Below, one piece after another: positions 3,601-30,221 of a DNA stretch of 64,000 nt. Below the pieces are notes generated by a model. That model saw nothing but the letters and a program-made list of their open reading frames with translations. It made no database searches and was not told the DNA's origin. The translations under genes were made by a program, and so were the position numbers. This DNA comes from Byssothecium circinans (lineage: Eukaryota > Ascomycota > Dothideomycetes > Pleosporales > Massarinaceae), in the NCBI GenBank assembly GCA_010015675.1, contig ML977026.1, forward strand, positions 175,940 through 239,939, in the 5' to 3' direction. Numbering within the stretch: position 1 is the first letter of the stretch; each line of letters starts with the position of its first letter.

Positions 3601-5288
3601 AGGATGAAGAGCCAAGCAAGAAGTATATCGACATGTGGCCGATCCAGATGTCTGCGGAGATTGCGAGTTCTAGCGATGATCCGTCGAAGAAGAATGTGCT
3701 CACAACAAACTTCGATACGTACACGCTCATCCTCCAGCTTGGATGCATTTTGCACACTGTGCCGTCATGGAAGCGGACCTACAAGCTCAGGGTAATCGTA
3801 TTCGTGGAATATGAGACTGATGTCGAGGAAGAACGCGGACGTGTTACGACGCTCTTGCGTAACCTGAGGATTGAGGCCGAAGTCCTCGTGTTTTGGCTAG
3901 CTAGCGGCAGTCTGAAGATGTATGAGGTCATCATCAACGGCCGCCATGGTGGAGACTTCGCGGAAGGCGCGCAGGATGTTGACAACGCACTAGAAGATGA
4001 AGAATGGTGGTCTGATATCCAGAAACTGCGTCGCCCACATAATATGACCGCAAGTCAAGAACTCGCCAACACCAATGACCTCCTTGAAGCCGTCAACAAC
4101 TGGCCCACAGCTTCCTTCCAATACGGTCGAACAGAAGCGCATCCCAAGCGTTTCCAACAACTACGCAAGATGCTGAAGCGAAGCCGAAAGACATCACTCA
4201 GCAACCTCCAAGGGGCAGGCGTTACAGCAGGCATGCGGACACAGCGACTCCCTGTGGACCTCTCAAGCGAAAGTTCCTCCTCAAGCGATGACGAGAACCA
4301 CCACGCAGACGACGAAGCCATCACGACGGAAAGTGAGGTCACAGGCAGTGATGATCGAAGCGAATACGACCTCGATGCCTCAGATGACGAAGAAAGTTAT
4401 TCACAAATCACTCCCGTCAAACGCAGCAAAAGCACCGGCACAACAGGAGGTATACCATTTATATCCCAGCGCCTCAACCTCCGCCAAGCGCTCTGGAGAA
4501 GCTCCTCGCAGACGCAAAATGACAGACCAACCAGCGATTCCGTCACCCCGTTGAGACCGCATCCAGGCACTATAACATCCGACAGCGCGCTTCCCATACA
4601 GGGAAAGGCATCGAAGAACGTACCTTCCATGAACACCCAACTCTCCTCAGGTTCATCCAATGTTACCAGACCGCCACCGCTTCGACAGCAGTCCCTGCCG
4701 AAATTCACCTCGAACCCTACACCACGGACTCAGGTCGCATCGGAAGAAGCATCAGGACCGTCAATCATGTTCGTCGAGAGCCCCACCGCAACGAGGATAA
4801 AAGACCCAATCGCTTCCGCGGAAACCTCCCCCGCGCAACTAGCTACTCAAGCATCAGTGTCCCCCTCAGCGGCAACAACAACACCACCACTCCCCTCCTC
4901 TCCCCTCCGAAACCCTTATATCCCCTCCGCCTCCCCCTCTTCCTCTAAACCCACCTCCACCCCCAGCCCCGCTACCAACACCACCCCACCATCCGCCCGT
5001 ACCCCGCCCCAGCAACAAGCATCAGGCTTCCCCCACCACGCCTCCATCCCCCTCTCCTTCAACGACCTCCCCTGCCGCGCCCAGCACCTCATCCTCAACG
5101 AGCTGATCCGCTCGCACTCGGACGACACGGCCGTCGTCTTCACCACGCTGCCGGCCCCCGTCCAGGGCACGAGCGAGAGCGAGCCCGAGAGCGTCAAGTA
5201 TGTGAGTGATCTGGAGGTGTTGTGTTTGGGGCTGCCGCCGTGTCTGTTGGTGCATAGTAATAGTATGACTGTTACTATGAATCTGTAG
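697..5288 (+). CDS. vhc1: Vacuolar cation-chloride cotransporter (SLC12 family, Vhc1-like)
   Basis: This protein is predicted to co-transport K+ and Cl- across the vacuolar membrane. Six exons are supported by splice sites and reading frame: 697-1195, 1243-1834, 1881-1933, 1989-2101, 2287-2796 and 2892-5288, giving about 1387 aa. The first in-frame ATG is at 697. A hydrophilic N-terminus is followed by the amino-acid-permease-type membrane core, beginning near residue 145 with LNVLSILMFLRFGFILGQTG and including NGTVRGGGAYYLISRSLGPE. The long cytosolic SLC12 C-terminal domain follows, interrupted near residues 1045-1085 by a Ser/Asp/Glu-rich stretch and a Pro/Ser/Thr-rich linker. The end, with LEVLCLGLPPCLLVHSNSMTV, is typical of the family. 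The 185-bp intron 4 is longer than the rest. It is convergent with MAK11. The length exceeds yeast Vhc1 because of the low-complexity insertion. Confidence 0.9.
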
Positions 5289-5360
5289 GATGGAGGGGGG
5301 GGGAGTAGAGGGGGGGAAGTAGAGGGGGGGAAGTAGGGGGGGGGAAGTAGGGGGGGGCAA
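5288..5360. repeat. G-rich minisatellite in the VHC1 3' flank
   Basis: Runs of seven to nine G separated by agta or aagtag repeat about five times directly after the VHC1 stop codon. Such a tract could form a G-quadruplex on the VHC1 sense strand. It lies between two convergent genes, so a role in transcription termination is possible but is only inference. Confidence 0.7.
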
Positions 5361-5579
5361 GAGGGAGATGTAAATTGCATGTCACGGAAATCCAGCAATT
5401 AGCAGTAGGCGTTAGCAGTAGACTAATCCCACACACGCACGAGAAGCCTGGAAATTTGACAGACAGACATACATACCATATAGTTACACACCAACAATGG
5501 CATGTATACTATACTATATTACACACTTTTCTAACTTTTCCAAATTTCCAACTTTCCGACTGCCCGGCTTTCGCATGCC

Positions 5580-12290: not shown

Positions 12291-13863
12291 GTGGATCCAT
12301 CATTATCGCCGGCCTCTTTTTGAGTTCTCACGCCCTTTACATCTTTGTACATAGCTTCTTTTAATGGTTGCGTCCCTTTTCCATTCTTTCACGGTAGTAG
12401 TTACGAGCAATGATGCGTGCTCGGGGATTAGCGGGGTCCATTTCGTTTGCTCCGAACCAGGGTCCCACACGAGGGCATGGAGTTATGGGCGTATTCAAAA
12501 GGCGTTACGAGCGGGTTGATATGGAAACGGTATGGGCCGGTATGGGTGGTCCTCTGGACGAGATGTGTGTTTGCGCACTCGCCGTGCTAGCTGTTCGTTT
12601 GAAGCTGAGCTGGAACTGGCAAAGATGGGAGTGAAACGGGTTAGTTTCGAGTGCTTGTGCGGCATGCATGTTATTGAATAGCGTGGACATTGGTGGTGGG
12701 GAACTAGCGGGCTATACGCGTTTGGGAAAATTCCGATGAATGCAGAGAAATTATCGCTTTTTGCTTAACCTATCTGTTGTCTGAGCGTCGGGGTCTATCT
12801 TGTGTGTTGTGCTGTTGTGGTGGGCTGGGAAGGGAGGGGGGAAGGGAGGGGGGAAGGGAGGGGGGAAGGGAGGGGGGAAGGAAGGGGGGAAGAGGGTGGT
12901 GAAGAACTGACTCTTATCTCTCATGACTGTGATAACTTGACCTGCAGCGGTATTCTTCGTATAAGACAAGGCATATCTACGTGTCTAGTTTCTAACTTTA
13001 GTATTTATGCGGCACGATCTAGAGGCAGACAGAGTCAGTAGAGCATTAATGTAGTACCTATACTAACTCTAGCGTAGGGAGATTTAGTGCAGGATGGATG
13101 GACGTTGGGTGTGAACGTAAAGCCTGACCTAACGGACCCCGTGGTGGAGAGTACGAAGGTGAGCTTGGAGGGAGGGGGGGGGACTAGGTCGGTATGATCT
13201 TGCCTTGCGGGGAAGTGGTGATGGGGTGTAAAGTCCATTATAAGCAATTGAAGAAGAAGATAAGAATATTAGTTAACTAAGAGAGTGGCCGTAGTCTACT
13301 AGTCTATAGTCTAATTACAAACCCTCTCTAGCGCAGCTATACTATAGTCTTGCACTATTTCTTTATTAACCCTAGTATAAACCTTTATACCTATATCTTC
13401 TAAGTCGCCTTTGCTTAGCTCGTTGCCTCCGCTCTTGAGAAAACGCCCGTTTCTGAGCCCATATCCCCGTGCACATACCTCTTTTACAAACCCCTCTATC
13501 AACGTACCTCCACTATTCAGCTAAAGAATTTCTGCTTAGAACGCAATGTATTTCCTAACCTAGTAAGGCGTTAGGGGGGCTATTATATTATAAATAGTAG
13601 GGATGGTTAATTTAAATTGCATAACATCTTTCGTATCCTCTTCCTTCGTAATCTTAACTGTAACCTTAAAAGTAGTTTTGACCCTAGTTATTATGTACAC
13701 CTTCTTACCTAATCTACACGTCTCTATATACTATACTCTATAACACCCACGCCTTTAATTGCCTTGGCTATATATTATAATGACAGCGTATTAACCCTGT
13801 TGTTTGTATAGTATTACAGGAGTATTCTATATTAGTAGCTAAACTGGACGCTGTCTGGTCTTC
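12291..13863. other. Intergenic region entering the accessory island
   Basis: The first 500 bases are ordinary 3' flank of EAF1. After a G-rich minisatellite the sequence becomes AT-rich from about 13,250, with frequent TpA and short broken frames. I see no supportable gene here. Confidence 0.5.
12826..12892. repeat. 13-bp G-rich minisatellite (about four units)
   Basis: The unit ggaagggaggggg repeats about four times with small variations. Closely spaced G runs make quadruplex formation plausible. It lies between EAF1 and the AT-rich island. Confidence 0.7.
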
Positions 13864-14109
13864 CTAGTCCAAGGGCACGAGCTGGATAAAGGTGCCGAAC
13901 AGACCAGCAGACCATTTCTGCGCCTTTTTTGCTGGACAGGAGAAGTGTTTTACCACTTTCGAAGAGGGATCGTCCGTTTTCGTGATGTGGGGTGGTGAAT
14001 CGGTTGATATAGCCTGGTTGCAGCCTTCAATTGAAGCTACGAGGGATCCTAACGGCATTTCGTTTAGGTGGATATTCCAGGAAGGCGAAAGGTAATATAT
14101 AGCCGGCAT
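13864..14109 (-). pseudogene. N-terminal fragment of a gasdermin-like protein
   Basis: This open frame of 81 codons starts with ATG at 14109 and ends at a TAG, after which AT-rich sequence follows. Its N-terminus (MPAIYYLSPSWNIHLNEMPL) resembles the start of the larger remnant at 15779 (MPASYFLGSSWDLYFDEVIP): both have the pattern MPAxYxL-x-SW-x5-E-x-P-x-G-x-VA. The later WSAGLFGTFIQ segment resembles the W/GLW-F motif I recall from fungal gasdermin-like proteins. Family members are usually about 250-300 aa, so this is a truncated 5' portion. Assignment to gasdermins rests on motif memory and the neighbouring protease, not on a search. Confidence 0.4.
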
Positions 14110-15042
14110 TAGTTTATAGGTTAAAGACGTAAATTATTAAGATGTAATAAAACTAGAGCTAAAGCATTACTATAGCATTATATTATAATACCTAAATACA
14201 TACTTTGTATAATCTAACATAGAGATAATAGTGCAGTAAATGCTTTATAGGTAGATGAAAGGAAAATCCTCCTTTTTAGAGTATCTGACGGACTAAAGGG
14301 TAGAGATATAAGAGTCTTAATCCTTTAATTATAGAAAAGGCTATGGATAGTGCGGGATATTAGAATATGTTATACTCCTAGCGTTATCTACTACTACGCT
14401 TTTAATCTATGCCCTTTAACGTCTACTACCTAGGAGAGGAGCTGAAGTAATCCTTGTAAGTGGCGTTTCTAGTCAGGCGTTTCTTATCCTTAGGGTTGAA
14501 AGGCTCTCGTTTCTTATGTGATACGTCTAGTTAGCTCCTAATAGCGAGAGGAGCGAAGCTAGACGCAGTAACGTGTGCAAGTTGCCTAGCAGTTGCATAG
14601 TGCAATTTGCACCATAGGGTAGCTAGGCTAGATGGAGTTCAGTGCGCTGGATTCCTAAGGTCCGTTTTTTGTTTAATAAAGTAAAGACATTCCCGCATAG
14701 CTAGAGAGGGTAAGGGTTAACGGGGTATTAGGGCTTAAAGGTATTCGTGCTTAGTGTTTATGTATAGGTAATTTGGAGGAAGCAACACACCAGTCTGGGG
14801 GCCTCTATTCCATACCCGTCTTAACTTCATCAAGCGACCTTATGGTAAATTGAGGAAAATAGCTAGCCCAGAAGACTTAGCGCGGAATTTTGCATTGTTT
14901 TCTCTATGGACACTGCGAGCACTGCGTAGTTTAAGCTCGCGACTGAGGGGTGAACTGTAACTCTGATCAGGAAGCTACTCCATAGGTGGTATAATTATAT
15001 TATAAGGTCCTTCTAATCCATCCTTAAATCTATCCTAAAGAG
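14110..15042. repeat. AT-rich degraded sequence between the two gasdermin-like remnants
   Basis: This stretch is rich in TpA and in stop codons in all frames. I see no coding segment or transposon motif. Alternation of moderately GC-rich patches with AT-rich patches is consistent with RIP-affected sequence of mixed age. Confidence 0.4.
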
Positions 15043-15779
15043 CTAATCCCCCTCAAGCCGATTCTCAGCTTTTTCAACAGTATATCCGTTCTCCGAGTTC
15101 TTCGCATGAGATTGTATAGGACCATAGATATACTCTCTGTGCGATGCCTTTCCTATGAGACTGAAGAGAATAGACTTAACCTCGAAAGCAAAGACTATTG
15201 ATCCATGGATCGAACGGGCGGTTCACCGAAGCAAATGCATCCTCCGTGATGCCCTAGGCGCGATACTCACCTGAGCAAATGGCATCTCAAATCCAATCTG
15301 CACGTATGCTTTTTCTCTTCTTCTGTTGTGGTCGAACTGACGTCGTGGGTGATCTTGACTCCAGTTATTATGAACGCTTTCACTCTTGTTCCTCCTATAT
15401 GAGATACCCTCTCACTCTCTATTCTTCCACGGATTTAGTGACAAATGATGTAGAAGGAGTGAGCTTTCTGGTCACCATCAACCTCGCAGCTATATTGTAC
15501 CTCAACCGTAGAGCTTGAAATCGTAGATATCTTTTCGTCTAATGCGGCGAACTACAGGAACGTTACAAAAGGTCAGAGTGTCCACTGCTTTGATACTTTT
15601 GCGACTCAAAAGATGTATTTGTCCTGCGTAAACAGAGAGAAAGGTGGCTCGATAGAGGAGGTAAGGTAAATAGATCAGAGAGCCCTTTCAGTGAATTGAA
15701 CAGTAGCCACGACAGTACCTGGGATTACCTCATCAAAGTAAAGGTCCCAGGACGATCCCAGAAAATAGGATGCAGGCAT
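15043..15779 (-). pseudogene. Gasdermin-like pore-forming cell-death protein, probably broken
   Basis: Fungal gasdermin-like proteins form membrane pores after proteolytic cleavage and drive regulated cell death. Three separate coding-like segments lie in order on this strand. The N-terminal piece is at 15675-15779 (MPASYFLGSSWDLYFDEVIP) and runs into TGA. A middle piece near 15265-15395 contains KAFIITGVKITHD, matching the [VF]-x-[IM]-TG-[LV]-KI motif I associate with the family, and ends beside a GTGAGT donor-like site. A C-terminal piece at 15043-15195 includes VFAFEVKSIL. The pieces are in different frames, and the expected mid-region with its GLW-type motif is not visible. I therefore think a deletion and frame damage have inactivated it, although unrecognised introns are possible. 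A subtilisin-like protease lies 2 kb away, which supports the assignment. Confidence 0.42.
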
Positions 15780-16332
15780 GTTATCTTGGATGTTTAGAGC
15801 ATAGAGTGAAAGTCCCAACTCGTTCGACGGAAGGAGTAGAGCCCAATTGAAAATCTGGCGATAGCACAAAGAACGAGTCCCAACGCTCCACTGCATCCAA
15901 CGGCCCCACCACTGCCATACCATCAATAGAGATGTTCCCAACCACGAAGCAGGAAGACTGTATTCCTGATTTTCGCAACGGCGCGCGGCTGCAAATCTGG
16001 CACATTCAGATTTAGTCTGCTTCCAAAACCCGTTGGCCCCTGATACGAAATGAGCGATCCAAGCCGTTAAACTAGCATCTTCTCTCACGCGCTTTTGGAG
16101 TCGCAATCAACACCTTGAGTACATAAGAATTAATTCTACACGAGAACCTAAACAAGAATTTCCACATGAGCCGTGTCCAGCACGACAAACACCCACACAA
16201 TAACAGCCACATCAGACCATTCATCCATACTCTCTGCATCCTTCCAACCTTCTGAAGCGTGTTGATGCAAAGGCCCATCGTTTTCTGACGAGCGCTACCT
16301 GGGTCTCCCCCTGCATCCCGGTTGGATGGGCT
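15780..16332. other. Unassigned sequence upstream of the gasdermin-like remnant
   Basis: On the minus strand an open frame continues upstream of the ATG at 15779 as far as 16106, but its protein has no family look. A second minus-strand frame at 15781-16005 is equally unfamiliar. It may be promoter sequence or remains of a further gene. Confidence 0.3.
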
Positions 16333-16967
16333 TTACAGAGTATTTTCTGCTCCCTTTTCCTGGGACTTTCCCCCCGAGGGAGCTGCAGGATCTTTTGCTT
16401 TATGGACGGCTTTCACCACTTCCTCCATCGTATTCATAGACTCTCCAATTCTGAGAAGCAATTCTAAGCGTGCATCTTCGCTGCATGATTGTTCGAGGTA
16501 TCGGAGGCAGAGGGCGGGGATTGTAGAGACAGGGGCTTTGAGACTCGTAACCATTTCTTCATCGGTGAGTTCGCGGCCAGCAAACACTATCAGGAATTAG
16601 CATTGGTACAGGAGAGCCTTTGAAGAGGAAGCATCTTACCACCGAGCATATCTGTGCAAATGATTTCTAGAAAGTTGATGATCAACAATCGTGGGAGGCG
16701 GTCGGCGCGAGCTTCGCTGCGAAGGCGGTGATCTAGGGAATCTGGCTCTGGCAAGAAAACCCGGCTAGTTGTTGCCCAGAGTTCGAATCTGTCGAGTTCC
16801 TTTTTCGCTTCCTCAAGAACGCGAGTTTGGTCCTTGGGAATTATCGAATAGTGGAGCAGGAGCTGGTGCGCTCGCTCGGCTGTTGAGACTATCGTTTCAT
16901 TGTCGAATTCCTTTAAGAAATTGAGCGCTACTGGTACTGTGGGAGCTGATCCAGATGGTGTCGTCAT
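16333..16967 (-). CDS. Small helical-domain protein of the accessory island
   Basis: Two exons, 16640-16967 and 16333-16586, are joined by an intron with a GTAAGA donor, a GCTAAT branch-like motif and a TAG acceptor. They encode about 193 aa. The protein looks all-helical with no signal peptide or membrane segment. Residues around 60-85 (RFELWATTSRVFLPEPDSLD followed by HRLR) follow the W-x-[TS]-x-x-x-[VG]-x7-[SP]-LD-[HY]-RLR pattern common in N-terminal helical domains of fungal signalling and NLR-like proteins. No enzymatic motif is visible. It lies between the gasdermin-like remnant and the subtilisin, and it is the only intact-looking gene in the island. A role in the same cell-death module is possible but unproven. 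Confidence 0.55.
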
Positions 16968-17836
16968 CGTGTTTGTATCTTTGGGCTTAGGATATTGACG
17001 GGTTGGTCTTCGATGGTGATAAAAAGGTATAGAGGAAGTGCTTGGGACAACGGTCTGTGACAGTGTGGAAGTATGAATATCAACTGGCCCTTAAGGTTAT
17101 CCCTCTATATATCGTTTGCGCTGTGTGAAGTATGAAGATGGTTGAAGAGAAGGGGAATCCTGAGCGCACGACAGTGACTCCGCTTGAGTCAAAGCACAAC
17201 CCCACAGCCGCCTGAGTCATCGTGCAACCAACATGTCTTGGTGCCCAACCGTCTTTCCCGTCGAGTTCTAAAACTGTGAGTAACGTCAGGTTTCATGTTG
17301 GCGGTTCAGCTCGCACTGACTCATTCCGCGAACGGGCCTGCGCGGAGTGTGTACCACGAGCTCCTTGAGCCGCTCCCCGATCTTTGCGAGTCCATGAATA
17401 CAGCAACAACACCTCGCACCAGCCTCAAAACTGAGAACCGGAAGGTCTTCCAACGTGCCCGGAGTAGCCCAAAATTGAAATGCAACAGATCGCGAATCTG
17501 GAAGCCTCGCGGATGGACTGCTGGCGAACGAAACTGAGCTCACCGACAAGTCAAAGCTATGCCTCACTGTTGTAATGTCCTGTAATTTACTCGACCTCTG
17601 CGGCAAGCCCTAATTTCCTAGTGGATGGACCGAAGACGGCATATGCGCTACACAAGCACAGTCACACATTTCCTTTCGATCAGCTCTAGTCGCACCAAGA
17701 CAGACAACCGCAGGTGAGTCACCTACAACTAACATATAGTTAACGACCTCAAACTCCTCTTCCATGGCATAATTCTCATGGAGATCTTTCGACAAGAGGA
17801 TTTGCCAATCACACCTACGCCTGGAAGGTCGATTGA
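16968..17836. other. Spacer between the helical protein and the protease remnant
   Basis: Contains the upstream region of the helical-domain gene. A minus-strand frame is open from 17795 to 17286 except for one TAG at 17610, and a plus-strand frame is open from 17295 to 17537. Neither shows a family I recognise. The plus frame could be a lost N-terminal exon of the protease. Confidence 0.3.
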
Positions 17837-19281
17837 TATCAAAAACACTCAGAGAAAAAGGCCGAAAAGGCGTTCAATAGTATTGAACGGGACGATCCTT
17901 AACGTTTCAAAGGCTTTGTCGGGGCGTGCATAGACGGATTCGAGGGTTCATCTGAGTCGGATGATGATTTATTCGCAATACGATTCTGTCAAAGAGTTAT
18001 TACTCCATTGCAGTCTATCTTTGCAGTTCTCTGGGGCAATAGAGATCCGGACGAGGTGATTTCCGTGATCAAAATGCCGACAGTGAAGCGCAAGAAGTCA
18101 CTTCCACCTCCAACGGCACCAAAGCCAGCACATTTCCAAGTATGTATCAGTCCAGTGGTCTTTAAATGCTTCTAAAATGTGCTAGACCAGGAAGCCAAAA
18201 CCTCGTGCACCAACCAGACATACCGTAGCTCCACTCAAGTTCTTCGACACGATTGATAAGCCCGAACAGAGACAGTAAGCAAGCCTAGCTATCTATACTC
18301 ATGCGCATTGACTTACTTTGCGACAGAATCTCCGGTGCTGCCAGATGGTTTGGATACTTCGAACAGGAACGTGTTCAGAATCAGCTTCCAAAACCCGCCA
18401 ATAAGAAAAACGAGAGAATCAAGATCGCCGTACTAGATACCGGTATTGACCTAGAGAATCCCTGGATCTACAACCACATCTGCAAAATCCGGTGTCGGCC
18501 AAACGAAATCGCTTGCAAGGACATCGATGGTCACGGAACCTAAGTTGCCTATCTTCTCTTGAGACTAGCACCGCATGCGAATCTGCGAATAGCCAAGGTC
18601 ACTAAATCCCAATATCTCGACGATGCCGATATTGGTAACATTGCCGATGCAATCCGTCACTTCGCAACCGAAAATGATCGAGTCGACATAATTAACCTCT
18701 CTTTCGGATTCCCCAAATATGACAAGAGACTGAAGCCGATACGAGAAGCAGTCCAATACGCGAGAGCGAAGAATGTGCTCATCTTTGCAGCCGCTGGTAA
18801 CGAAGGAGGCAATCACGGTATGTTCTGGCCGGCAAAGCTTCATGAAGTCGGCGACGTCATAAGTATCCACGCATCCGACAGCGACGGGAACGCATCCAGT
18901 TTCAATCCTACACCTGGATTAGGCGGCCCTATCTGTACGCTTGGAGAGGCCGTGCCTTCGTGCGAATTGGATGAGCGAAATCTCGCCGTACATCGAAGCA
19001 GTACTTCTTTTGCGACACCCATTGCGGTCGCTATTGCGGCAATTGTTTTGGGCTTTGTAGGGAATGTGGGTATGGAGGGTGTGCCAGAAGATTTTGAGTC
19101 GCTCAAGGAACGGCTGCGCACGAAGGCGGGGATGGAAAGAGTGTTGCGCACAACTTGTGTGCTCGCAGATGAGAAGAGGAGGGCAAAATTTTCCTATATT
19201 ACGCCGTGGTTTTTGCTGGATATTGAAGAGTGCTCACGGATACACATCATCGCGAACGAGTTGAGAGGTATTCCGGAATGA
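17837..19281 (+). pseudogene. Subtilisin-like (S8) serine protease with in-frame stop codons
   Basis: Subtilases of this type partner gasdermins in fungi, cleaving them to start cell death. Coding sequence runs 17837-18139, 18186-18274 and 18327-19281 with clean GT-AG introns; the first ATG in the undisturbed frame is 18074. The catalytic residues are all visible: Asp in KIAVLDTGIDLENPW, His in DGHGT, the oxyanion Asn in AAAGNEGG, and Ser in SSTSFATP, where the usual Gly of GTS is Ser. A TAA at 18541-18543 falls immediately after DGHGT, followed in frame by VAYLLLRLAPHA, the normal continuation. A second in-frame TAA at 17900-17902 interrupts upstream coding-like sequence (RFKGFVGACIDGFEGS follows it). 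Both fit CAA-to-TAA transitions. The upstream portion suggests a longer N-terminal domain than the ATG at 18074 would give. Confidence 0.72.
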
Positions 19282-20202: not shown

Positions 20203-21515
20203 TCAATACCTCCGATTCGCCTCCACCTTCACCAAATCCCTCTCCGCCTGCTGCGGATCCCCCTGAAACACCAATTCCAGCCTCCCCACCTCATTCTCCC
20301 TCACCCCCACAGGTTGCATAAACGTCCCCGTCTCCTCGATCCTCACGCTCGTATACCCCAAAAACTCCGGCTGCCGGGACTGCAAAGCCAACGCCACCAG
20401 ATCCGCAGGCGTAGACCAGCCTCGACACTGAATCGGTCGGAACAGCATACTTACCCAGTATATCAGGATACCGAGACAGTAGCTGCAGAGGAGCACTATG
20501 GAGAACTAGATCGTTTTGCCGTCGAAGTTCCAGCCCCAGCCCGTCTCGTAGACGGTGGCGCTGGTCTTGGTACAGTTGTCGAGGGCGAGGGAAAAGGACT
20601 TGGGACAGGCGAGGGTGGGGATGTTGGTAGCGATGGTGGTGCAGTTTTGATCGGTATCATCTTCATGCTCGTTGCACTTGTGAGGGCTTCTGTGAGAATG
20701 GTGTTCTGCTTTCGCATTTGCTAGAGCGTTCGCGAAGAGGGCGGCGAGCACCATTTCTTGGGATGCGGGTTGGCGTGCGTGGATGGCTTCGCTTTGGTTC
20801 CAGGGTTCGGGCATTTGGAGGAAAAGATCGGTTTTGTGGCCGGTTCTGTCGAGTACAGAGTGCCATAATTCCTTGGAAAAATCGGTTGGGATGGATATAG
20901 GGCTCTCCATGGCGTCGGGTTCGGGTTGTGTTGGCTGCGTGTGTACCAGGGGAATCGTCATCGTGGGGTTCGATATGTAGTAGGCCTGTTGCCATGTGGC
21001 ATGGATGCCGCACGCAACAATCGAGAGGCTCGAGTTGCCTGGGAAAACTTGGTTGGAGGAATTGATCGCGTCCGTTATGGAGGTAGTGTTGTTGCCTCCT
21101 ACCATGAAAGCGCTCAGTTGTATCACGGAGTAGTCGACTCCTGATGGAGGCTTCATCCATTGTCCAATGCGGTCATTCCCCGTGGAGTTGTTCTCGGACG
21201 AAGGGGGCTGTAATGTGTACAAGGATGCAGCAGACCACGGGTGAGCCAGCAAGACGTGTCACAAGTCAAGACGGGTGACTCAACTTGACCACAATGCACC
21301 TTGCCGTCCTGAAAATCCCTCATGCATTTTTGCGTATCACAATTCTGTCGATCATTAGCTTTTAGAAATGAGCTGGGAGAAACTATTGACCGTCCGTACG
21401 AGCACGTAAGGCTCCGTGTTAAACTTCTCAGCAATGCATACACAAGATGTACTGAACGTTCATCGAATTTTTCTTTGGCGAATTTGAGAAAATGCAAGCG
21501 GATAAAAGATTGCAA
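20203..21515 (-). pseudogene. Decayed fungal integral membrane protein
   Basis: A 248-codon frame (20506-21252) contains SVIQLSAFMVGGNN, several N-glycosylation sites (NNST, NSS, NQS) and an extracellular-type composition. After one in-frame TAG at 20506-20508 the same frame continues to 20203 with a hydrophobic segment (LLCSYCLGILIYWVSMLFRP) and an ordinary C-terminus. This layout, an ectodomain then a C-terminal transmembrane helix followed by QCRGWSTPADLVALALQS, matches a large family of uncharacterised fungal membrane proteins. Upstream, the frame is closed by a TGA and continues in another frame (cysteine-rich, to 21515), so the N-terminal part is missing or shifted. The TAG fits a C-to-T change of CAG. 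Probably a pseudogene. Confidence 0.55.
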
Positions 21516-25696: not shown

Positions 25697-28401
25697 CTTT
25701 TCTGATCTGGGACGGGTTGCGGATTACTAACTACAGGTCGCGATAGTGGGAGCGGATGCCGCTTGCTAAGCAGTTGCGTTATGTTAAGGAGGTAGATATG
25801 CCAGATAGGTATTTTATGCCGGTGGATTCTGGCCCCAATTTGAGAGGAATAGTCGGCTGGGAGGACGCCGGGTATGGATACGTGGGGTTTGGAGGAGATA
25901 ATTAGGGAGTACTGTCTTGTTTTAAATGCTTGAGAGAGGTTTGATGAATGGGGAAGTAGTACGGCTGTTCTACGACCACTTGTTTCGATCGTTAACATTT
26001 CTTAAAGCTTTACAATATCTTGCTCTAGGGAGCATAATGACTTTCAAATTATGTCTTAGGTGCTTACATCCAGTAAAAGCCACGCAATATGACAGATGAG
26101 TTAAACGATATCGAGAAACATTCTCATTCCTGTCTAACTGGCTTTAACTCGTCTCATTCCTCCTCCGTGGTTATAGGTATAAGAGCTACAGAGAATACCC
26201 TTCACTATTCTCACAATCCCATCATCTAACAGCCCATCCATCAGCGCAATGACATTCCACAGTGACAACATTATGCAAGACCTCTTCGCAAAAGCCAACG
26301 TCCTAGCTAGATTCCAACAAAAACAGAAAACCTAAAACCTAGGATTGCGTATCCGGGTTGCCGACAGAGAAGCTAACGTGCAGCAGAACAAGCTCTAAGT
26401 AAACTTCCTAATTAGTTATAAAGGAGTTAACAAGCACCAGAATAATGTCCTTGCCAACTAGCTAGTTAAATACAGAGTACGTAGCAAGCACCGATATAAT
26501 CTACTTGCTATTTTCCTGGACCATGTAGCCGCCATTTCAAGGGGAGGGGTGGCATAGCAGGCAAGAGGTAAGTGATTATAGCTATTATGTTCTAGATATA
26601 ACCGCTAATTACATACAGTATGTTACAACTCGCGCGAAGGTAACTACGGAATGGCATGTACTAAATATATTGCGATAAGCTTCTCCACCGTTATTAAGCG
26701 CTAATATATAAGTGCTACCTGAAAATCTATAGATTCTAAACATGCTAAAAATGGAAAAGGTAGAGGAACTGGAATAGGAGTTCCGCTAGGATGTTTCCTT
26801 AATGCTAATTAAAATAGTAGTTCAACACTAAAACCAATTCCGCTACTAATTCAAAATTCCTTTCCTCTTTGAATATGCAAAGGAAGCCAATTTCCTGAAC
26901 ACGAGCGCGAACTACAGCACTACCTCTGATCCCGAGGCTTCCCTTCACGCAGCCATGTATAAGGGTGGCGGAGCTGGTCAGTAATGTCAACCTAAAGGAT
27001 TCCGCATTTTAGCTGATAGCGCGTGCACTGCTTGAAGATAATCTAGGCCTGTTACATTTCATCAAGCTTGCGGATTGGGTTTTTGAGGGTAGGAGTAATT
27101 AGGTGTTCTAGCAGCCATGTGGTATACTTGCCAATTACAGTGCATTCTAGGCCCTAGTATGGAGCTAGGAGGATCTAGCACGATATTTTGAGCTTATTGA
27201 TTTGAGCAAGGGGACTTATAGCTGGTGGCATAAAGAGGTTGTAGTAGGCTTAGCGAAAGTTACTACGAAATATCCTTAGGCGGTGAAGAAGCGGTCGCTA
27301 GAGATTCTTGCTAAGTCCAATGTTTCAGTGGTACCGAAAGAGGAGGAAGAATTAGATAAGGAGGGTGGAGGAGATGAGGGGGAGGAGGAGGGATAAGTTA
27401 GTTAGTTCTATCATTATCGTGTTAAGAAATACTATAGATGCAGGTCATTGATAAGAGGAGGAAATCTAGGAACAACTACTAAACGCAGCAAAGGATCGCT
27501 GTACTAATGCAGAATTATTGCAAAGGTTTACGGTATGCATGTTTTGTAAAGCCTAGCCAGGAGCTTCACAGTAGAGTTTACGCGCAGCTTTATAGGGATT
27601 ATACAGTCATGCTCGTGGACTTTAAAAGCTATTTATGTAAGGTGTTCCCAAGACACTGAAATGCTGCGAACCTACGCAAGGAGTAATCTCTTTATCTCTT
27701 CTCTTCTTCCTCTTGTGACGGCATGCACAGGCACACACTATTCAGCAGTCTCGCTCTAGCAAATCGTTATATGTTTGTTACAGCATCTTTCCGCAAGAGT
27801 AGGTATAGCAATGACTCATTGGGAGTATCAATAGTGCGAATGGGGAGTGATGGGTAGTGGAACGTAAGTATAAATCTATGCTTTTATTTGTATTTAAATA
27901 GTGCAGGCTAGGATTGAATTGTATGCTTAGGATTTACAAGTTTAGATGCGGATATACAATAACGCGTTGGTATTATACGCTAATGGATGCTACGAAGGCG
28001 AGCTTTGGTAGGAAGAAGTGCTCAGGTAACAAGCTATTGAGGCTCCTGTTACTATTATAGCTCTAAGTTTGAGCGGAGTTTTAGGCATTGTATCCCCTTT
28101 AGACGAGCATTGCAAGGTATGGTTGCAAGTTCCCTTTTCGAGATCTCGCTACTACAAAAGGGTGGGGCGGTGGAGAAAACCCATGAGGCGACTCTCTATG
28201 CTGGAAGTTTTGGAATTATGCTGCTGCGGGGTACTTGTATCCTCAGTTCATGGCAAGCTTAACTTTTAACTATCCCTTTTAGCTCCTGTGTATATATATT
28301 ATATAGCTTCGAAATATTTTTTAAGGTAGTAATCTAACACATGCACTAATGTGGGCTTTTGAGCTGCTGGTTGAGAGCTGGCCTTGGAGTTAGCCTAACG
28401 T
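25697..28401. repeat. Accessory spacer with decayed coding relics
   Basis: A 2.7-kb gene-poor, AT-biased region. Around 26,990-27,395 the plus strand keeps a long protein-like frame broken by several TAG codons, with segments such as LLHFIKLADWVFEG, LSKGTYSWWHKEVVVGLAKV and a Glu/Gly-rich end. I cannot name the family. It looks like a transposon or gene relic hit by C-to-T changes. Confidence 0.4.
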
Positions 28402-28493
28402 GCTACCTTTTTTGCTGTTTTAAGGTTTCTTCTAAGAATGGTAAATTCTAAATAGGCTCGCAAGGGATAGGGGTTCGATCCACGCAGGTAGCA
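28402..28493 (+). pseudogene. tRNA-like relic, possibly tRNA-Leu
   Basis: The 5' gctacct pairs perfectly with 3' aggtagc, and a perfect B-box-like ggttcgatcc sits at the right distance before it. The total of about 92 nt and an extra arm of class II size point to a Leu or Ser tRNA. A loop of sequence ctaagaa would give anticodon AAG. The D-arm (A box) has become T-rich, and the anticodon and T stems contain mismatches, so it is probably a dead or SINE-derived copy. Confidence 0.4.
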
Positions 28494-28895
28494 ATATTTT
28501 TTGTATTTGTAGTTTTTATGCATTCTGTAATTCTTAAGGTCGATAAGACCTAAGAATATGTTTTAGGAGTGCTGGCGATCTTTGGGTAGTAGTAACAGTG
28601 AAGATGTACGTTTTATAGAGCAGTCTAGATCTTCTTGTCATGCCAACACGAAGGTAATAATCACCAATATATGGGCACATATAAGGGCTTTGCTGTTCAG
28701 CACGGTTGTCTACGGAACCCTTAGATAAGTGAAAAATGTACGTTGTCAACACTGACGCAGTGCCGCGTTGTTGCAGTCACTGCCATCTCAATCTTTGCAC
28801 GACCAAGCCGACTATTATAAATAGGGCTAAACGGAATCCCATGTTGAAAGAGACTAAAGAGAAAAATTACAAATGACAAGCAAGTTATTGTATTT

Positions 28896-30221
28896 ATGAT
28901 GAGTGATAAGGACTCTTACCGGCAAAGCATTATTGGTGTCCGGATGGAAGTCATAGCTCTAGCCTGCCTATTAAAACGCCAAAGAGGAGAATTGGCCGAT
29001 GATACAGCGAGCCCTTCAAACAATATTCACGCCGTTATTGATACACATCACCGAGCAGGACACATTCACACTGTGGACCCGGATATCGATAATGATAATG
29101 AGGTCTTGTCAGAAAACGTCCCTCTAGGGAGATTCCTCGACCGATTAGCGTTTGTATTAGCTGGTGGCGAGACGGGTAAACATGTCACTGAAACTGCGTA
29201 CGTAACAGTGAAGCAAGATAAGGAAGAAGATATTCCAAAGATATATGTCACGAAGAATAAGAGCGCGTATAAGTACCAGTCGCATGCCAACAAAATGCAG
29301 AAGTGGCTGCGGAATGTGGCTACGAAAACTGCAACAGAGGCTGAGAAGATACGTGCGTAGAAGTACTTCGTCGAGTTTAACAAGGGATCAATTGACAAGT
29401 ATGTTAAGGAGATTCAGGAGGTAGGTATGGATGGCGTTTGCTCGTACTTTGCGTCCTCGCCATCGAAAAACTTAGCCCGTGAATTCTGCAAACTCTGTAA
29501 GGAGTTCTCACCAACTGGAAGCGATGCAGCTTCCACTCGCCAATCCATCATTGATAAGGCACGAGAAATTCGACTCCAAAAACGATCTAAGAATGAGCTA
29601 GAACAGCCCCGCCCGCAACCTCTTACTTCCTTATATCTGCTTGGTCTTTACCGCGCTTCTTTCGAAACCTTTCAGACTTTCGCCAGCAAGCACTCACCCT
29701 TCCGCGACCTCCGTATTGAGTGCGTCCCAGATACCAATGGTCTCGGAGATCAAATTCTTTGGCCAGAAATTCTGGAGACGATGAAGTTATTTCGCCCTAA
29801 TCACCAGTTTCAGCTAAAGGAACGCACATGGGAGGGCAAAGTCCATGCAGAGATACAAATGCTCAACCACCTAGAAAGCTTAGGTGAGAACGAGACACCT
29901 CACTTATATATCGGATGCAGCAAAAAGGCTTGCTGGATGTGCCACGTTATGTTGCAAGAGTACACCCTCCAGTCTTGTACGGAAAGCATAGGCAGAAAGC
30001 TTCGGATGAAACACTCTTCTCTTCAGATTTTTAAAAGATGGGACCCTCCTTTCTTCGACTCGGAGGATATGCGGGATGAGTATTTGCGCTGCCTAACGAA
30101 GATGAGGGACTTGATGGTAAGTGAATTGGAAAGGACTGAAGCGCAAGTTAAGCGCAGCCAAGAAACGGCAGATCTTAGTCAAAACAATAGTGCTGATAAT
30201 AGTCCTAAAAGGGGTCTTTGA
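28896..30221 (+). pseudogene. OTT_1508-like nucleic-acid deaminase, one in-frame stop
   Basis: OTT_1508-like proteins are a fungal branch of the cytidine-deaminase superfamily, thought to edit or mutate nucleic acids in genome conflict; substrates are unknown. The frame from ATG 28896 runs 441 codons to 30221 and is interrupted once, by TAG at 29358-29360. The zinc site is visible: His and Glu in GKVHAEIQML (near 29,841) and the two cysteines of KKACWMCHVML (near 29,930). Downstream, LQIFKRWDPPFF is the expected C-terminal element. The half before the TAG is helical and charged. Sequence across the stop reads naturally (IRA, stop, KYFVEFNKG), so a single CAG- or TGG-to-TAG change is likely. 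If the stop is real, translation from an internal start such as ATG 29427 would still include the whole catalytic part. Confidence 0.62.

What the first reader, a model, noticed from the sequence alone, without database searches (positions are those of the whole stretch)
13864..19281. Candidate gasdermin/subtilisin regulated-cell-death island, apparently inactivated
Within 5.4 kb there are two gasdermin-like remnants on the minus strand and a subtilisin-like protease on the plus strand. The remnants share MPAxYxL-x-SW-x5-E-x-P-x-G at the N-terminus, and one also has the KAFIITGVKI motif. In fungi, gasdermin genes are often next to protease genes whose products cleave and activate them (het-Q1/het-Q2 in Podospora is the described case). 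Such pairs act in allorecognition and tend to be polymorphic, so an AT-rich, decayed copy flanked by conserved core genes could be a dead allele of a polymorphic locus. The gasdermin call rests on motifs and context.
Basis: partly seen in the sequence, partly recalled or inferred. Interest (0 to 1): 0.85.

Follow-up and report, generated by a model that had tools for sequence, protein, structure and literature searches.

The report
Dead fungal gasdermin and protease cluster
Two neighbouring fungal genes for cell-killing pore proteins (gasdermins) and the protease gene beside them are broken relics of a known kind of self-destruct module, while at least one other such module in the same genome still looks intact.

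Summary
Two homologous minus-strand frames, 14109-13380 and 15779-15046, are decayed fungal gasdermins of the RCD-1/HET-Q1 kind. A profile of both found an intact Botrytis protein, then 30 fungal proteins. A profile of 28 of these matches only gasdermins in the PDB (7 of 7 at E<=10) and matches the window's broken pieces in order. The modelled homologue folds like RCD-1. Best alignments count 5 stops and 2 frame jumps in copy 1, 6 and 3 in copy 2, and one in-frame stop in the S8 protease, right after GHGT. Copy 1 lies in DNA with a RIP-like bias. Genome searches found three more gasdermin loci; all four lie within 8.1 kb of one of 20 S8 loci, and the 16 other S8 loci showed no gasdermin nearby (about 5 kb each side). 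So this is a dead member of a known class, the fungal gasdermin-S8 cluster. Whether it is a dead allele of a polymorphic locus could not be tested. An intact 193-aa gene of unknown role lies between gasdermin and protease.

The parts
13380..14109 (-). Gasdermin copy 1, decayed: 5 stops and 2 frame jumps in the best alignment; best-kept pieces 14109-13867 and 13730-13563
   Evidence: Profile of external proteins: 14133-13867 E 1e-16, 13730-13563 E 1.5e-6; alignment to P0005 77 of 241 identical
15046..15779 (-). Gasdermin copy 2, decayed: 6 stops and 3 frame jumps in the best alignment
   Evidence: Profile matches in order: 16106-15678, 15538-15422, 15434-15270, 15411-15226, 15222-15046; alignment to P0005 101 of 243 identical
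18289..19281 (+). S8 (subtilisin-like) protease domain, interrupted by an in-frame stop at 18541 directly behind GHGT; D, H, N and S motifs all encoded
   Evidence: PF00082 9.8e-15 for 18544-19278; stop and motifs; no other lesion against the S8 domains of C13 and C11
17733..18288 (+). Probable N-terminal part of the protease gene, structure uncertain (possible introns; stops in the frames)
   Evidence: Read from the three-frame view; no Pfam match for 17903-18172
16333..16967 (-). Intact gene of 193 aa with one predicted intron (16587-16639), between gasdermin copy 2 and the protease; role unknown
   Evidence: Open reading frame after splicing; no Pfam match near a cut-off; no counterpart beside the other S8 loci
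12501..15000 (.). Stretch with a RIP-like dinucleotide bias that covers copy 1 and the gap between the copies, not copy 2
   Evidence: 1-kb windows starting 12501-14001: TpA/ApT 1.36-1.58, (CpA+TpG)/(ApC+GpT) 0.70-0.90; by feature; the window starting at 14501 is 1.08 and 1.09, so the bias fades there

Best explanation
The interval is the relic of a fungal gasdermin-protease cell-death cluster: two tandem gasdermin genes of one subfamily and a divergent S8 protease gene of the HET-Q2-like kind. In life (inferred from the known class) the protease, once triggered, would cut the C-terminal tail off a gasdermin; the freed N-terminal domain would assemble into membrane pores and kill the cell or hyphal compartment. 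Shown here: the gasdermin family, the S8 domain with its catalytic motifs, the linkage of gasdermin and S8 genes at four loci of this genome, and the lesions. Inferred: cleavage, pore formation, the trigger, and that the locus now does nothing. The gasdermins are far decayed while the protease domain has a single stop, so the protease probably broke later or decays more slowly. The other gasdermin-S8 loci of the genome may explain why the loss was tolerated.
Against: No curated family accepts the copies: PF04598 has no match in the genome and reaches at most 14.2 bits (cut-off 25) in the homologues. Single pieces and the two-copy profile found no gasdermin in the PDB. The fold model is of a homologue, of middling confidence (pLDDT 65, pTM 0.68), and its Foldseek TM-scores are modest (0.57 at most). 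The whole-genome searches used single proteins and can miss gasdermins. No function was tested.
Confidence: 0.92

Rival explanations
1. It is the null haplotype of a polymorphic allorecognition locus: other strains carry intact gasdermin and protease alleles between the same flanking genes, and fusion of unlike strains leads to cell death. This can be true together with the best explanation.
For: Fungal gasdermin pairs are known allorecognition genes, and a pseudogenisation model of their origin is in print (PMC10197012, passages). Loss of the killers with a less damaged protease fits such a model.
Against: No strain data. Several lesions in both gasdermins and a RIP-like bias also fit plain loss.
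Confidence: 0.2
2. Part of the locus is still used: the intact 193-aa gene, or a truncated protease product, keeps a role after the gasdermins died.
For: The 193-aa gene is open with a good intron, and outside the RIP-like stretch.
Against: No known domain and no counterpart beside other S8 loci. The stop splits the protease before its N and S motifs, so neither part holds the full catalytic set.
Confidence: 0.15
3. The genes are intact and the stops and frame jumps are sequencing or assembly errors.
For: The protease shows a single stop, which one error could make.
Against: The gasdermins carry 11 stops and 5 jumps in 1.5 kb, while the 1138-codon flanking frame, the 193-aa gene and the 1483-codon C13 frame are open.
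Confidence: 0.03
4. The minus-strand frames belong to an unrelated family or are chance frames.
For: Direct Pfam and PDB searches with the pieces and with the two-copy profile gave no gasdermin.
Against: Intact intermediates link them to RCD-1 and HET-Q1.
Confidence: 0.01

Closest known systems
HET-Q1/HET-Q2 of Podospora anserina
   Same: Gasdermin and S8 protease at one locus; the profile of the homologues matches the HET-Q1 pore sequence at 9.9e-6
   Different: Here two gasdermins, a 193-aa gene between, and everything but that gene broken; het-Q1 and het-Q2 are idiomorphs, different genes at the same locus (PMC12881547, passages), here gasdermins and protease lie on one haplotype
RCD-1-1/RCD-1-2 of Neurospora crassa
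   Same: Closest solved structures by sequence and fold
   Different: RCD-1 is activated by meeting its other allele, without cleavage (PMC12881547, passages); the C3 gene of this genome is far closer to RCD-1 (3.4e-24) than the window copies are
Fungal gasdermin-Q2L (S8) two-gene clusters
   Same: About 63% of fungal gasdermin genes are reported to be clustered with S8 genes (PMC10197012, passages); same linkage here
   Different: Reported Q2L proteins are often multidomain; no repeat domain was found on the window's protease. This cluster is dead
Gasdermins C13, C11 and C3 of the same genome
   Same: Same wider family, each near an S8 gene; C13 and C11 proteases with TPR-like parts
   Different: Other subfamilies: 13.7% and 16.5% identity of copies 1 and 2 to C13; C13 is open throughout
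Uncharacterised fungal proteins P0001-P0030
   Same: Same subfamily; both copies group with P0005 (Clohesyomyces aquaticus), P0015 and P0027, support 0.974
   Different: 24 of 30 are 270-285 aa long; their neighbourhoods could not be read here

Membership tests
Fungal gasdermin (RCD-1/HET-Q1 family) | Sequence homology to the pore-forming domain | tested here: met
   Through intermediates. Direct searches without intermediates found none
Fungal gasdermin (RCD-1/HET-Q1 family) | Gasdermin fold | tested here: met
   For the intact homologue P0001 with 27 relatives only; the window's broken copies were not folded
Fungal gasdermin (RCD-1/HET-Q1 family) | Short C-terminal tail removed by a protease | tested here: inconclusive
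   Copy 2 aligns to near the end of P0005 but not over its last residues; no cleavage site was sought
Fungal gasdermin (RCD-1/HET-Q1 family) | Working gene | tested here: not met
   Stops and frame jumps in both copies: pseudogenes of the family
Fungal gasdermin (RCD-1/HET-Q1 family) | Membrane pore and cell death | not testable with these tools
   Needs experiment
Pfam PF04598 Gasdermin | Score over the curated cut-off | tested here: not met
   No match in the genome; 3 of 28 homologues match weakly, best 14.2 bits against 25. The model also misses the C13 gene, which matches RCD-1 at 5.1e-12, so it is blind to these fungal gasdermins
HET-Q2-like (Q2L) S8 protease | S8 domain with D, H, N and S motifs | tested here: met
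   interrupted by a stop
HET-Q2-like (Q2L) S8 protease | Gene beside a gasdermin gene | tested here: met
   3.1 kb from copy 2
HET-Q2-like (Q2L) S8 protease | Sensor part such as TPR, ANK or WD40 | tested here: inconclusive
   No Pfam match for 17903-18172; the 5' end of the gene is unsettled
Allorecognition (het) locus | Polymorphism among strains and incompatibility on fusion | not testable with these tools
   One genome only
RIP-mutated DNA | High TpA/ApT with low (CpA+TpG)/(ApC+GpT) | tested here: met
   Copy 1 1.38 and 0.80, gap 1.57 and 0.77; copy 2 0.77 and 1.15; the usual thresholds of 0.89 and 1.03 are recalled
RIP-mutated DNA | A second copy of the DNA in the genome | tested here: inconclusive
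   None found, but that search skips very common words and the partner may be lost

The most novel reading that the evidence does not exclude
The cluster was a three- or four-gene module (two gasdermins of one subfamily, an S8 protease and a small 193-aa protein) that segregates as live and dead haplotypes in the species, with the 193-aa gene as an unrecognised regulator kept after the killers died.
Probability: 0.08. Interest if true: 0.65.

Novelty: new member of a known kind. Interest (0 to 1): 0.4.

Why it matters
It is a clear case of loss in the turnover of fungal gasdermin clusters: the killers far decayed, the protease domain with one stop, in a genome that keeps other gasdermin-S8 loci. 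If the killers died first, as the lesion counts suggest, that would fit a protease that is harmless without its target, and it can be tested by dating the lesions across strains. It also shows that the standard gasdermin model PF04598 finds no gasdermin in this genome, although at least three further ones can be recognised through RCD-1.

Tried and rejected
Intron reading: I first took the breaks in copy 2 for introns, because a good donor-like site lies near 15274. Rejected: the frame runs on through that place in register with P0001 and P0005. The first composite query, built on that idea, had 53 candidates and no hit at E<=10.

Direct searches with the window's pieces against Pfam and the PDB found no gasdermin, nor did the two-copy profile. 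P0001 alone has no PDB or Pfam gasdermin match either. The link came from the 28-member profile. The single-sequence fold of P0001 (pLDDT 31.6) was not used.

The 193-aa gene: my first splice was off by one base and was corrected. No Pfam match near a cut-off; no counterpart in 20 fetched loci; one weak genome hit to its first exon on C2 (E 0.042) was not followed. That it looks like the N-terminal part of some fungal NLR proteins is recalled and comes from no call.

Weak genome hits of the C13 gasdermin on C2 and C8 (E 0.029 and 0.24; loci L025, L027) gave no match to the profile at E<=10. Two precomputed PF26164 labels (P0010, P0020) were not reproduced by the Pfam scan and are unexplained.

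Not done: synteny in related fungi (no tool here reads the neighbours of the fungal homologues) and naming of the species.

Rows left out: A4 holds 28 of the 30 proteins (P0019 with 364 aa and P0030 with 155 aa left out); the tree leaves out P0028 and P0030. The control covers about 5 kb on each side of 16 S8 loci (two stretches are shorter, 6.7 and 6.6 kb in all); two of the four positive pairs (5.6 and 8.1 kb apart) would not have been caught by such a stretch, so the control is weaker than the positive count.

Full report
What is in the sequence. On the minus strand two frames begin with MPAxYxLxxSW, at 14109 and 15779; the motif occurs only these two times in six frames of the 64-kb window. 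They are homologous: the 81 codons of copy 1 find copy 2 in the 48.4-Mb genome at E 4.9e-4, second only to the query itself, the third hit being 0.52; the local alignment scores 103 against a best of 48 in 5000 shuffles. The later pieces alone are less clear against each other (4 of 5000 shuffles reach the score). Pfam and the PDB searched with single pieces gave no gasdermin.

Back to the window. The A4 profile was run over 3171 translated fragments of the window and eight loci. It picks copy 1 at 14133-13867 (profile 4-81, E 1e-16) and 13730-13563 (129-178, 1.5e-6), and copy 2 at 16106-15678 (3-37, 7e-5), 15538-15422 (99-121, 0.015), 15434-15270 (129-161, 4e-9), 15411-15226 (157-183, 0.004) and 15222-15046 (191-246, 2e-10), in order. 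The external proteins were gathered with a profile that held the window copies, so this confirms the register rather than being a wholly blind test.

How broken. A frame-tolerant alignment to the Clohesyomyces protein P0005 covers 15779-15046 with 101 of 243 residues identical, 6 stops and 3 frame jumps, and 14109-13380 with 77 of 241 identical, 5 stops and 2 frame jumps; P0015 and P0009 give the same counts, P0001 gives 5 and 3 stops over shorter ranges with the same numbers of jumps. Copy 2 has no intron; my first reading of one was wrong. Copy 1 and the gap between the copies show a RIP-like bias; copy 2, the 193-aa gene and the protease do not. No second copy of 12400-14800 was found. In a tree both copies fall with P0005, P0015 and P0027 (support 0.974) and next to each other (0.80) on long branches; long-branch attraction may add to that last pairing.

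The protease. The plus-strand frame 18544-19278 is S8 (PF00082, 9.8e-15). Motifs for D, H, N and S lie in one frame from 18289, interrupted by a stop at 18541 directly behind GHGT. Against S8 domains of C13 and C11 that stop is the only lesion found. The N-terminal part is unsettled. Between copy 2 and the protease lies a 193-aa gene with one predicted intron and no known domain.

The rest of the genome. Searches with P0005, the C13 gene and the C3 gene show three more gasdermin loci: C13, one open frame of 319 codons, RCD-1-1 at 5.1e-12; C11, 4.4e-9; C3, 3.4e-24 for its first part. PF00082 finds 26 matches, which I merged into 20 loci. All four gasdermin loci lie 1.8-8.1 kb from an S8 locus; with uniform random placement the chance is about 2e-9. 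In 16 stretches around the other S8 loci no gasdermin match appeared at E<=0.5, but these stretches reach only about 5 kb to each side, less than the distance in two of the four pairs. The four matches that the window's own S8 frame finds at E<=0.001 are itself and the S8 genes of C13, C11 and C3, that is, the gasdermin-linked ones. At C13 the partner is one 1483-codon open frame with TPR at its start and S8 at its end; at C11 a TPR-like part below Pfam's cut-offs and an S8 domain in two frames precede the gasdermin on the same strand.

What it did. From the known class: a protease, often part of a sensor protein, cleaves a short C-terminal part off its gasdermin, which then forms pores and kills the cell; about 80% of fungal gasdermin genes are clustered with a protease gene, about 63% with S8 (PMC10197012, passages; PMC12881547, passages; PMC10989679, passages; RCD-1 pore work PMC11760362, passages). 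The primary paper on HET-Q1/HET-Q2 was not held and is known to me only through these reviews. For this window the mechanism is inference; the present state is a dead cluster. One review proposes that allorecognition systems can arise by pseudogenisation of such pathways (PMC10197012, passage); whether dead and live versions of this locus coexist in the species is open.

Novelty. A new, dead member of a known kind. Two searches for print on such loci (gasdermin + pseudogene + fungi + heterokaryon incompatibility, 2 papers; gasdermin + repeat-induced point mutation, 1 paper) showed no description of one in the listings; I read passages of one of these three papers (PMC9262711). That is a small search and proves little.

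Noticed in passing
L020:1877-2836(-) and L020:4114-8565(+) (own genome C13): A divergent pair that looks intact: a gasdermin in one open frame of 319 codons and a 1483-codon frame with TPR at the start and S8 at the end.
   Followed up: partly
L021:1690-4166(+) and L021:4570-5628(+) (own genome C11): S8 domain in two frames with a TPR-like part before it, followed by a gasdermin. Introns were not worked out, so whether both are intact is not settled.
   Followed up: partly
L028:4525-5094 and 5098-5439(+); L022:4432-5462(-) (own genome C3): A gasdermin close to RCD-1 (3.4e-24) about 8 kb from an S8 gene in two frames. A withheld stretch lies between, and nearby frames look to me like transposase (recalled, no call). 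Intactness not settled.
   Followed up: partly
16333-16967(-): Intact 193-aa gene with one intron and no known domain, between the dead gasdermin and the broken protease.
   Followed up: partly
26001-29000: A second AT-rich stretch, GC 0.41-0.42 in its 1-kb windows, with TpA/ApT near 1.2 but no drop in the second RIP index.
   Followed up: no
20506-21156(-): Open frame of 216 codons between the dead cluster and the EXS gene, no Pfam match.
   Followed up: no
P0010, P0020: Precomputed label PF26164 that the Pfam scan did not reproduce.
   Followed up: no
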